Virus record (IMG/VR): IMGVR_UViG_3300034682_000410
Coordinates: 1 to 40,831 of that record
Source of the DNA: a virus
Reading direction: 5' to 3' (one strand)
DNA: 40,831 bases
Below the pieces are notes generated by a model, which saw nothing but the letters and a program-made list of their open reading frames with translations, did not search any database and was not told the origin of the DNA. The position numbers and the translations under genes were made by a program. Below, piece by piece: positions 6,234 to 17,172 of this stretch (position 1 is the stretch's first letter; each line of letters starts with the position of its first letter).

Positions 6234-6440
6234 CTAAATTCTGCGCAGGCTAATCCCCTCACGCTTTGCCATCTGGCGAAGAGATTCATATGTGCGGTTA
6301 ATTTGACGAGCGATTAATTTTGTGTGAATGGTTCCTGCGAGGCGCTTAACTTTGATGATTTCCGTTTGTGTCCATGGCCTTCCCTGGCTTATTTGGTTTG
6401 GTCGCATCGCATAAATTTCTTTATGCCTGTATGTCACCAT
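6234..6440 (-). CDS. Small helix-turn-helix protein, 68 aa
   Basis: I place the start at the ATG at 6440 (MVTYRHKEIYAMRP), 20 bases inside the preceding gene, with AGGA upstream; an ATG at 6407 is an alternative. The protein has the layout of a Myb/SANT-like or resolvase-type HTH: GRPWTQTEIIKVKRLAG, then KLIARQINRTYESLRQMAKR, then GISLRRI. It should bind DNA. It follows the exonuclease/annealing-type pair by overlap and is probably translated with it. The protein at 18858-19088 has the same general layout. Confidence 0.7.
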   Translation of the reverse strand: MVTYRHKEIYAMRPNQISQGRPWTQTEIIKVKRLAGTIHTKLIARQINRTYESLRQMAKREGISLRRI

Positions 6441-6999
6441 TAAGTTCCTTTTTCCTGATTCCATAAACGCTGTCGAGTTTGGATTTAAGCTCGGAATCAC
6501 CACCAATGGCGCTTGATGCTCGCGTATATGCTGCTTCAAGTTTTGGCAGGTCCATTGTCAGAGCATTTTCTGAAAACCATGAGAGAACAGTTTCGGGCGT
6601 TTGTGCCGGCTTAACGATAAGTTTGCGGACGCGATGTTCTTGTCGTTTGCCGCGAGACACTGACAGCATCATAGAAAAATCAGCTTCAACATCACTCATG
6701 GCGAAAATCTTGATACCGCCGACCGCTACGCCGCCAAAACGTACCGATGGGTCTCCAGTGATTGTCAGTGAGCGTCCAACCCATGAATGACCGTCAGCAC
6801 CCCAGCCACCAATAAGCACACGTCGCATTGATTTAGAAGGCTTATACGGTCGTCCTTCATACCCCTCCAGATCGATAAACACTGGCTGCTCTGAATTACC
6901 AGCCCGGACAGCTTTGATGACAGCTGTAATGGGTTGACTTTGAACATCCTCAAAATTGAGTTGATCGGACTTTGGAATGATTGTGCGTGAAAGGTCCAT
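6421..6999 (-). CDS. Candidate annealing or ssDNA-binding partner of the exonuclease, 192 aa
   Basis: The product ([15 protein letters not shown]...) belongs to a family I have seen in many phages without a firm function. A beta-rich core at residues 24-110 contains GNSEQPV, GRPYKPSKSMRRVL, GWVG-type loops and GDPSVRFGGVAVGG, then a basic region (SRGKRQEHRVRKLIVKP) and a helical tail (160-192). It is not RecT, Red-beta or Erf as I know them. Its ATG shares one base with the stop of the RecE-like exonuclease, and gam lies upstream: in lambda the gam-bet-exo set occupies this place. The context therefore suggests a single-strand annealing or ssDNA-binding role in recombination, which is inference. 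An exonuclease accessory subunit or host-nuclease modulator is an alternative. Confidence 0.6.
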   Translation of the reverse strand: MDLSRTIIPKSDQLNFEDVQSQPITAVIKAVRAGNSEQPVFIDLEGYEGRPYKPSKSMRRVLIGGWGADGHSWVGRSLTITGDPSVRFGGVAVGGIKIFAMSDVEADFSMMLSVSRGKRQEHRVRKLIVKPAQTPETVLSWFSENALTMDLPKLEAAYTRASSAIGGDSELKSKLDSVYGIRKKELNGDIQA

Positions 7000-7820
7000 C
7001 AGAGAATTACCTCGTCGTCATATTCTTCATCCAGCAAATATGCCGGAACGTTAATTTCATTGGATGGAAGGACAATGCCTTCGTATTTTATGAATTCATC
7101 TTCCATGCACTCTTTTATTTTCCAGAGCGCGGCAATCATTTGCTGGCGGCCTAGTTCCAATGACTCCTCGCCGATGTAGTACATGCAATTGCGGTAAGGC
7201 GCGGTGTTCTCAATGGCGAAGAATGCGAACTGATTTCGCTCAATTCCGGTAGCGAGCTTGAGTACATACAAATAGAAAGCCGCCTGAATATGGTATCGGT
7301 ATTGACCAAGGGCATTGCTAAAACCGCGCTCAGTTGCATCCCTGCAACTTTTCACATCCAGCGGGTACGGTGTTGTTTCTGACAGCCTGTCAAATCGACA
7401 TTTAAGGTCCAGTCCGGTTTCAGGGCAGGTGGCGAACATCGACACTTCTGATGCTCCTGGAGTATTCATGTAGTCCATGAAGTCATCATTCATCCGTGAT
7501 GATTCAAACATCCGGTTTACTGTCTCTACCTCATTTCCAACCAGGATATAATCAGGATTAGTCCATGCTGCGGCTGTTTTATATTCTTTCAGACTTCTTG
7601 AAGCCACTTCTGGCATTAGCAAGTAGTCACGTTTGAATATTTCTGGCTCCAGCAATGCTGAATGGATCGCACTGCCAAGATGTGCGGATTTGCTGCCTTT
7701 AAAGGGATTGAAATACAGATTAGCCGGACTGACACTTACGGCTTTAACCGATGTCGAACCGATAGCTTTATTGGCATGGTAATCTTCATTAGGCATGCCG
7801 TAGTAGATGCCTGGTTTCAT
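6999..7820 (-). CDS. RecE-like PD-(D/E)XK exonuclease, 273 aa
   Basis: Resembles the C-terminal nuclease domain of RecE and related phage exonucleases. The opening [20 protein letters not shown] is typical of this group. His53 lies in [11 protein letters not shown]. The active-site carboxylates appear as Asp144 (CRFDRL) and Asp155-x-Lys157 (LDVKS), and a QxxxY motif at Gln179-Tyr183 is characteristic of RecB-family nucleases. It would degrade the 5' strand of linear duplex DNA to give 3' tails for annealing, producing recombinant or concatemeric phage DNA. It overlaps gam by four bases and the 192-residue gene by one, so the three form a translationally coupled recombination unit. It is not the lambda Exo type. 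Confidence 0.85.
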
Positions 7821-8113
7821 GCTGCATCCTCAATATCAATCTGGTTCTGCGCGATAACCTCAGCCATCAGGCGAAAATGTTTTGCATTTCGCTCCTGAAA
7901 ATCGACGTCATCATCAAATGCGCGTGAAATTGCCAGCTTACTGGCTCCGTGGCGCTGCAACTCAGAAAGACAGATATCTTCAAGCATTCGCTGCTTCAAA
8001 GCCGCCTCAAGCTCATCAGCGAGTTTGTTGATACGCTCATACTTTTCTACTTGGCGATGATAGGAAGCCCAGCGCTGGTCTTCGATGCGGTCATATGCGC
8101 GATATGCGTTCAT
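7817..8113 (-). CDS. gam: Gam-like RecBCD inhibitor, 98 aa
   Basis: Closely resembles the 98-residue short form of lambda Gam as I remember it: [11 protein letters not shown] at the start, [12 protein letters not shown] in the first long helix, then [22 protein letters not shown] and [17 protein letters not shown]. Gam dimers mimic DNA and block RecBCD, protecting phage DNA ends and favouring concatemers needed for headful packaging. The gene overlaps its neighbours by four bases on each side and sits upstream of the exonuclease, as in lambda. P22 itself uses Abc1/Abc2 and Erf here, so this is a lambda-type module in a P22-type phage. Confidence 0.88.
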
Positions 8114-16749: not shown

Positions 16750-17172
16750 ATGCAGGAGTTCATTCTGCACGAAACGAATAAGTCACAATTCTGGTCAGTC
16801 CTCAAAGAAATCCTCTCTACCGGTAAACGCTGGCGCATCAAAATCTCAGAGTATCGCGAAAAGCGGTCACTACCGCAGAACAGCCTCATGTGGAAATGGA
16901 ACACGGAAATAGCCGAGCAGCTAACCTCTGTCAGCTCTTACGTGTTTACCGATGATGATATTCACGAGTGGCTCAAAGACATGTATTGCCCGGCTAAACC
17001 GGTAACCCTGTACGGCATGACGCGTTATGTGAAGTCTACGCGGATGCTGGATGTGGGAGAGATGCACAAATACCTGGAGGATATCGACCGGTGGGCGCAC
17101 CAGAAGGGACTGAGGCTAACCATCCCTGACCAGTGCGAATACCGCGATTTGCAGCGGAGGCAAAACGAATGA
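16750..17172 (+). CDS. ninB: NinB (Orf) recombination protein, 140 aa
   Basis: Resembles the NinB/Orf family: a basic beta-rich N-terminus with WRIKISEYREKRSLPQNSLM (given in part: REKRSLPQNSLMWKW, the family's most conserved segment), a helical middle, then STRMLDVGEMHKYLEDIDRW. Lambda Orf is a ssDNA-binding mediator that can replace RecFOR in loading recombinases. It should work with the early recombination genes and NinG. Confidence 0.85.
   Translation: MQEFILHETNKSQFWSVLKEILSTGKRWRIKISEYREKRSLPQNSLMWKWNTEIAEQLTSVSSYVFTDDDIHEWLKDMYCPAKPVTLYGMTRYVKSTRMLDVGEMHKYLEDIDRWAHQKGLRLTIPDQCEYRDLQRRQNE

What the first reader, a model, noticed from the sequence alone, without database searches (positions are those of the whole stretch)
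6421..8113. Recombination unit gam / RecE-like exonuclease / unfamiliar 192-aa partner
The three genes overlap by 4 and 1 bases and replace the lambda gam-bet-exo set. The exonuclease is of the RecE nuclease type, yet the next gene is not RecT, Beta or Erf as I know them. An exonuclease of this kind needs an annealing partner, so the 192-aa family may be an unrecognised annealing or ssDNA-binding protein.
Basis: partly seen in the sequence, partly recalled or inferred. Interest (0 to 1): 0.72.

Follow-up and report, generated by a model that had tools for sequence, protein, structure and literature searches.

The report
Unnamed partner of phage recombination exonucleases
A small, uncharacterised protein in this phage sits beside a DNA-chewing enzyme in the place where other phages keep a strand-annealing protein, and the same pairing recurs across very different phages, so it is probably an unrecognised half of a two-part DNA recombination system.

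Summary
In detail: gam (7817-8113), a RecE-type exonuclease (6999-7820) and a 192-aa gene (6421-6999) overlap by 4 and 1 bases on the minus strand. The 192-aa protein is PHROG 11517 (unknown function), without Pfam or NCBIfam match. Relatives occur in phages or prophages of Enterobacterales, Vibrio, Actinobacteria, Alphaproteobacteria and cyanobacteria. A nuclease lies upstream in 91/91 viral and 79/80 genome loci examined, RecE-type or YqaJ-type: one partner, two nuclease families. None of 58 records with the family matches RecT/Red-beta, ERF, Rad52 or Sak3 models; of 50 RecE records, 31 have RecT, 5 this family, none both. A confident model shows an OB-like domain plus a variable three-helix tail. 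Paired nucleases often end in an acidic-hydrophobic tag (here DDEVIL); its strict form is absent from 76 RecE-type and 161 YqaJ-type control nucleases, but phylogenetically independent contrasts are few. Best reading: a new family of annealing/ssDNA-binding partner of exonucleases, perhaps docked through that tag. Activity is untested. A 2022 Vibrio-phage survey probably flagged the same cluster as an unassigned putative recombinase.

The parts
6421..6999 (-). 192-aa exonuclease partner (PHROG 11517): candidate annealing / ssDNA-binding protein
   Evidence: relatives; model (mean pLDDT 92.7)
6607..6999 (-). its N-terminal domain (residues 1-131): conserved OB-like domain with basic and aromatic conserved positions
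   Evidence: alignment; model (pLDDT 89.8, pTM 0.82); VIA-align rows; conservation
6424..6606 (-). its C-terminal domain (residues 132-192): predicted three-helix domain, poorly conserved between relatives, absent from the 134-aa Pseudoalteromonas phage TW1 member
   Evidence: TW1
6999..7820 (-). RecE-type (DUF3799, PD-(D/E)XK) exonuclease; residues invariant across 8 aligned nucleases include R-x-D, D-x-K and Y-x2-Q-x3-Y
7002..7031 (-). last ten codons of the exonuclease ([10 protein letters not shown]): candidate docking tag for the partner
7817..8113 (-). gam, host RecBCD inhibitor family
   Evidence: PF06064; PHROG 259

Best explanation
gam, the RecE-type exonuclease and the 192-aa protein form a two-component exonuclease-annealase recombinase with its Gam helper. 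Gam protects linear phage DNA from RecBCD (known for the family). The exonuclease resects 5' ends and exposes 3' single strands (known for RecE; family residues conserved here). The 192-aa protein binds that single strand through an OB-like domain and pairs it with complementary DNA, taking the place of RecT/Red-beta (inferred). It is loaded by direct contact with the nuclease, perhaps through the nuclease's acidic-hydrophobic C-terminal tag (inferred from the tag's distribution). SHOWN by computation: gene order, near-obligate pairing with two nuclease families in the loci examined, no match to known annealing families in the same records, domain layout of a confident model, co-distribution of the tag. 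INFERRED: ssDNA binding, annealing, physical contact. Probabilities: functional partner of the exonuclease about 0.9; annealing/synaptase activity rather than only ssDNA protection or RecA loading about 0.65.
For: 1) Nuclease upstream in 91 of 91 viral/phage loci (71 RecE-type, 20 YqaJ-type; YqaJ by Pfam in 8 of 8 tested) and in 79 of 80 bacterial-genome loci. 2) Slot equivalence: in RecE phages without the family RecT sits directly after RecE (Escherichia 666R9, Bordetella IFTN5, Mycobacterium Jonghyun; RecT confirmed by PF03837 for the first two, by PHROG for the third). 3) Exclusion: RecT 0/58, ERF 0/58, Rad52 0/58, Sak 0/58 records with the family, no AAA_24 match over its cut-off; of 50 RecE records 31 have RecT, 5 the family, 0 both. 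Without the 4 records I had picked by hand it is 29, 5 and 0 of 46 (hypergeometric 0.0045 worked by hand, ignoring kinship). 4) OB-like domain: 40 of the 50 listed VIA rows for the N-domain are OB folds by my recall of those proteins (best Z 5.1); 12 positions are basic in at least 85% of 60 relatives, and Y52, W66, W73, F88 are aromatic in all. 5) Nuclease tag (strict regex): paired RecE 50/71 (viral) and 18/32 (genomes), paired YqaJ 15/20 and 24/41; unpaired RecE 0/76, unpaired YqaJ 0/161; kept where the genes lie more than 100 bases apart (11 of 23 distinct tails strict, 19 of 23 relaxed). 6) A separate SSB-family gene exists in 14/58 records, in TW1 directly after exo and partner; an SSB also follows RecT-exo in L280 and Erf-exo-endonuclease in L281.
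Against: No biochemical data. No fold match is individually significant (no PDB hit at E <= 1e-3; all VIA Z below 8), so 'OB-like' rests on the consistency of weak matches, 18 of them RuvBL entries. Tag against pairing on trees: the RecE tree gives only 5 supported independent contrasts (relaxed tag follows pairing in a mean 4.4 of 5, never the reverse, best reachable p 0.0625; strict tag 1.4 of 5) and the YqaJ tree only one. The regex was defined after looking at the first 91 tails; 21 of 71 RecE and 5 of 20 YqaJ paired tails fail it, and the looser form also occurs in 5 of 76 and 17 of 161 unpaired nucleases. In the window the exonuclease tail encodes a GAGG that may be the partner's ribosome-binding site. 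The Pfam RecT model misses some RecT-like proteins (record W13), so absence counts are not complete. The control nuclease sets were found with RecT- or Erf-paired queries, so their RecT share is no population estimate. Kinship among records, and at least one phage present twice (SEN22, W01 and G005), inflate counts.
Confidence: 0.67

Rival explanations
1. It binds and protects the 3' overhang (an exonuclease-tethered SSB) or loads host RecA, without annealing strands itself; recombination then runs through host RecA or host annealing functions.
For: OB-like domain; the phage also carries a NinB/Orf mediator (16750-17172); 44 of 58 records, the window included, have no PF00436 SSB gene.
Against: A separate PF00436 SSB exists in 14 of 58 records and lies next in TW1; the record of L009 has another gene annotated as an OB-fold nucleic-acid-binding protein right after it; it fills the same slot as RecT and was not found together with RecT in the records tested.
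Confidence: 0.2
2. It is a regulatory or processivity subunit of the nuclease (or keeps it inactive in the host) and the phage needs no annealing protein of its own.
For: Near-obligate pairing with the nuclease and a partner-associated nuclease tag fit any nuclease-binding protein.
Against: Conserved basic and aromatic positions of an OB-like domain suggest nucleic-acid binding; exclusion with RecT would be unexpected if the functions were additive.
Confidence: 0.08
3. It is an unrelated early gene that only shares the operon.
For: Phage early operons are mosaic (recalled); the next ORF (6234-6539, D5-like) has another function.
Against: Pairing holds in 170 of 171 loci examined, over many host groups and two nuclease families.
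Confidence: 0.02

Closest known systems
Exonuclease-annealase two-component recombinases (lambda Exo/Red-beta, RecE/RecT; 'SynExo', 'EATR')
   Same: Exonuclease plus adjacent small partner, gam upstream, same slot as RecT after RecE; DNA-binding-type N-domain plus helical C-terminal domain. In Red-beta the three-helix C-terminal domain binds lambda Exo and SSB (PMC8303780, passages read).
   Different: The partner has no sequence match to RecT/Red-beta; its order is beta2-alpha-beta4 OB-like, and the candidate docking element is a tag on the nuclease.
T7 Gp2.5-type OB-fold annealing proteins
   Same: Would share an OB-type ssDNA-binding domain and, if the reading is right, annealing by an OB protein (recalled for Gp2.5).
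   Different: No Gp2.5 annotation found. Gp2.5 genes are reported beside polA/DUF2800 and without ssb genes (PMC8093625, section read); this family is beside RecE/YqaJ, sometimes with ssb.
Unassigned putative recombinase clusters mmseq 297, 600 and 149 of Nahant Vibrio phages (Kauffman et al. 2022, PMC8766483; passages read, supplements not open to me)
   Same: I saw the family in 12 phages with Nahant-type names; in the 7 whose neighbouring gene I saw it is 'putative exodeoxyribonuclease 8'. This fits mmseq 297 (21 phages, always next to one exonuclease cluster). The mmseq 600 representative AUR82881.1 is a possible distant relative: profile-profile hhalign P 9e-5, probability 59%.
   Different: That paper inferred a recombinase by neighbourhood in Vibrio phages; in the passages read it gives no fold, partner swap, exclusion or nuclease tag. 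Identity with mmseq 297 is inferred, not verified, and AUR82881.1 alone against our profile was not significant.

Membership tests
RecT/Red-beta (PF03837) | sequence match to the family model | tested here: not met
   no PF03837 match of the window protein or of 4 relatives; no RecT match in the window record or 57 others
RecT/Red-beta (PF03837) | Rad52-like core fold (beta-beta-beta-alpha) | tested here: inconclusive
   confident model but no significant structural match to anything solved
RecT/Red-beta (PF03837) | adjacent exonuclease partner | tested here: met
RecT/Red-beta (PF03837) | ssDNA annealing activity | not testable with these tools
   needs purified protein
ERF, Rad52, Sak (PF04404, PF04098, PF06378) | sequence match | tested here: not met
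   no such match of the protein; 0 of 58 records for each model
Gp2.5-type annealing proteins | sequence match | tested here: inconclusive
   no Pfam family over cut-off and PHROG 11517 only, but no Gp2.5 model was searched by name
Gp2.5-type annealing proteins | OB-type ssDNA-binding domain | tested here: inconclusive
   most listed but weak VIA rows are OB folds (40 of 50 by recall, best Z 5.1)
bacterial-type SSB (PF00436) | sequence match | tested here: not met
   separate PF00436 genes in 14 of 58 records, none in the window
exonuclease-annealase two-component recombinase | exonuclease gene coupled to the partner gene | tested here: met
   overlap of 1 base, DUF3799 nuclease
exonuclease-annealase two-component recombinase | physical contact of the two proteins | not testable with these tools
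   only indirect: partner-associated nuclease tag
exonuclease-annealase two-component recombinase | annealing activity of the partner | not testable with these tools
   needs assay
mmseq 297 of Kauffman et al. 2022 | same protein cluster | tested here: inconclusive
   Nahant-type phages carry the family beside exodeoxyribonuclease 8; the cluster table could not be opened

The most novel reading that the evidence does not exclude
PHROG 11517 and its possible distant relatives (phrog_21613/AUR82881 type) are a fold class of phage annealing proteins separate from the Rad52-like, RecA-like and Gp2.5 classes: an OB-like annealase that works with RecE-type and YqaJ-type exonucleases alike because nucleases of both families carry a short transferable C-terminal tag ([DEQN][DEQ][IVM]-x-hydrophobic) read by the annealase. 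Tag and partner are then a portable code for assembling recombinases.
Probability: 0.4. Interest if true: 0.82.

Novelty: new variant of a known kind. Interest (0 to 1): 0.67.

Why it matters
If true, a recombination partner that is common in phages of many bacterial groups has been filed as 'hypothetical protein'. It would add an OB-like class to the annealing proteins, explain phages that have an exonuclease but no visible annealing protein, and supply recombineering candidates for Actinobacteria, Alphaproteobacteria and Vibrio, where lambda Red works less well (recalled). The nuclease tag gives a direct test of how exonuclease and annealase recognise each other.

Tried and rejected
Sequence search of solved structures with the family profile: only tyrosine-phosphatase hits at E about 1, rejected as chance. 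Foldseek on the full model: top PDB rows are non-significant; C-terminal VIA rows (retron PtuA, EXOG, designed bundles) look like common three-helix arrangements. No Rad52-superfamily chain is among the listed rows, which shows nothing either way. BFVD gave 8 matches at E <= 1e-3, all uncharacterised or unnamed in the listing, plus non-significant rows named Sak3 (49 columns, 1.2 A) and 'Recombinase' (64 columns). Shine-Dalgarno artefact as sole cause of the nuclease tag: not enough (tag kept at gaps over 100 bases; tag absent in RecE of L116 and L118 and YqaJ of L280 although the next gene overlaps); the share of tight operons among all controls was not counted. Tag as a proven co-evolution signal: not reached, too few independent contrasts. 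Acidic SSB-like C-terminal tip on the partner: seen in some relatives only, not in the window. AUR82882, the YqaJ next to AUR82881, does not end in the tag, so the tag is not general for that branch. Plasmids: 3 of 72,556 records, so no wide plasmid role. Literature on the family: paper searches found only the Kauffman paper as likely prior mention; that library lacks most subscription journals. Rows dropped or left out: two of 84 control RecE loci (L128, L130) had no readable end; some searches were given 58 records (the window and 57 of the other 90 loci then held, mostly longer contigs); some searches were given 50 of 84 control loci. That control nucleases lack the family was judged inside the fetched locus only. 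Seven of the 14 control records with neither RecT nor the family were not resolved.

Full report
What is there. The window is a 40,831-base IMG/VR virus record, apparently a P22-like lambdoid phage: excisionase, N-like and CI/CII-like regulators, O-like and DnaB-like replication genes, and late-gene ORF sizes typical of P22 relatives (typical sizes recalled). On the minus strand gam (7817-8113), a RecE-type exonuclease (6999-7820) and a 192-aa gene (6421-6999) overlap by 4 and 1 bases. Gam is PF06064 (E 9e-34), the exonuclease DUF3799/PF12684 (E 1e-26) and PHROG 412 exonuclease VIII (E 3e-72); the 192-aa protein matches only PHROG 11517, unknown function (E 6e-72).

Distribution. tblastn finds relatives in 186 of 50,697 phage records: Vibrio, Arthrobacter, Gordonia, Rhodococcus, Aeromonas, Pseudoalteromonas, Salmonella, Synechococcus and others. 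Only 3 of 72,556 plasmid records match. It is essentially a phage and prophage family.

Pairing. In all 91 viral/phage loci examined (80, 10 annotated phages, the window) a nuclease lies upstream within about 500 bases: RecE-type in 71, YqaJ-type in 20. Eight of the 20 YqaJ assignments were checked with Pfam and all were confirmed; the other 12 rest on sequence likeness. So one partner family goes with two nuclease families.

Slot and exclusion. In three RecE phages without the family RecT sits directly after RecE (confirmed by PF03837 in two, and by PHROG in one). Whole-record searches of 58 records with the family found RecT 0/58, ERF 0/58, Rad52 0/58, Sak 0/58, AAA_24 0/58 over cut-off (one weak match below it), SSB 14/58. 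Of 50 RecE records (46 from a scan with a RecT-paired RecE, 4 picked by me), 31 have RecT, 5 the family and none both. In the 14 with neither, the slot held phrog_3657 in 4, a RecT-like protein in 2 and a Sak-like protein in 1 of those scanned; 7 were not scanned or not resolved. The Pfam RecT model missed the RecT-like protein of record W13, so some annealing genes may have escaped these searches.

Structure. AlphaFold2 on 60 window and IMG/VR sequences gives mean pLDDT 92.7; the N-domain alone 89.8, pTM 0.82. The N-domain is beta2-alpha-beta4; the C-terminal 60 residues form three helices, vary widely between relatives, and are missing from the 134-aa TW1 member. No PDB match is significant, but 40 of the 50 listed VIA rows for the N-domain are OB folds by my recall (RuvBL domain II, HIN domains, SSBs, PriB, PrgE, Teb1, ligase OB domains), best Z 5.1. 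Eighteen of these are RuvBL entries, so they are not 40 independent matches; the other 10 rows are ribosomal-protein chains (9) and BrxL. Twelve positions are basic in at least 85% of 60 relatives, and Y52, W66, W73 and F88 are aromatic in all.

Nuclease tag. Nucleases paired with the family often end in [DEQN][DEQ][IVM]-x-hydrophobic within the last ten residues (window: [10 protein letters not shown]). I defined the pattern after seeing the first 91 tails (50/71 RecE, 15/20 YqaJ) and then kept it fixed: genome loci 18/32 RecE and 24/41 YqaJ; RecE without the family 0/76 (41 distinct tails), with the family in the same set 5/6; YqaJ without the family 0/161 (80 distinct tails). Shuffled tails give 4-6% for the four paired sets. 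A looser pattern gives 63/71, 27/32, 18/20 and 37/41 against 5/76 and 17/161. In the window the GAGG in this tail could be the partner's ribosome-binding site, but the tag persists where the genes are more than 100 bases apart (11 of 23 distinct tails strict, 19 of 23 relaxed). On trees built without the tails, RecE pairing changed at least 9 times, 5 contrasts are supported, and the relaxed tag follows pairing in a mean 4.4 of 5 and never the reverse (p 0.0625, the best reachable); the strict tag in 1.4 of 5; YqaJ offers one contrast. I read the tag as a lead worth testing, not a proven docking site.

Relation to known work. Red-beta has a three-helix C-terminal domain that binds lambda Exo and SSB (PMC8303780, passages), and exonuclease-annealase complexes are an established kind (PMC9512822, passages). 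The seven families named in PMC8093625 (abstract, passages and one section; [quoted passage not shown] Kauffman et al. 2022 (PMC8766483, passages) listed mmseq 297, 600 and 149 as putative recombinases of unknown family, found from gene neighbourhoods. AUR82881.1, their mmseq 600 example, lies in MG592413, and its relatives include two Nahant records, MG592413 and MG592433, as they state for mmseq 600. Its family aligns with ours over residues 5-100 (hhalign P 9e-5, probability 59%; the single sequence alone was not significant) and lies beside YqaJ in 19 of 19 IMG/VR loci. That our family is mmseq 297 is likely but could not be checked.

Verdict. I rate 'functional partner of the exonuclease' near 0.9 and 'annealing protein' near 0.65. 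It is a new variant of a known kind of system rather than a new kind of system.

Noticed in passing
L122:5834-6961, L124:5862-6902, L131:5916-6935, L154:5799-6797: phrog_3657 (unknown function, 333-376 aa; no Pfam family over cut-off in the three members tested) lies directly after a RecE-type nuclease: another unassigned candidate annealing family.
   Followed up: partly
L094:9937-10440 and L097-L115: phrog_21613-type proteins (AUR82881.1 family), possible distant relatives of the target, sit beside a YqaJ nuclease in 19 of 19 IMG/VR loci, with the nuclease downstream.
   Followed up: partly
window 16750-17172 (+): NinB/Orf-type recombination mediator gene (phrog_72), so this phage keeps a mediator besides the gam-exo-partner unit.
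   Followed up: no
window 6234-6539 (-): Small D5-like regulator ORF (phrog_323, E 7e-8) directly after the target gene and overlapping its end.
   Followed up: no
NZ_CP140743.1 and NZ_AP024588.1: Two plasmid records of 41-43 kb carry close relatives (79-80% identity) of the target; perhaps phage-plasmids or circular phage genomes.
   Followed up: no
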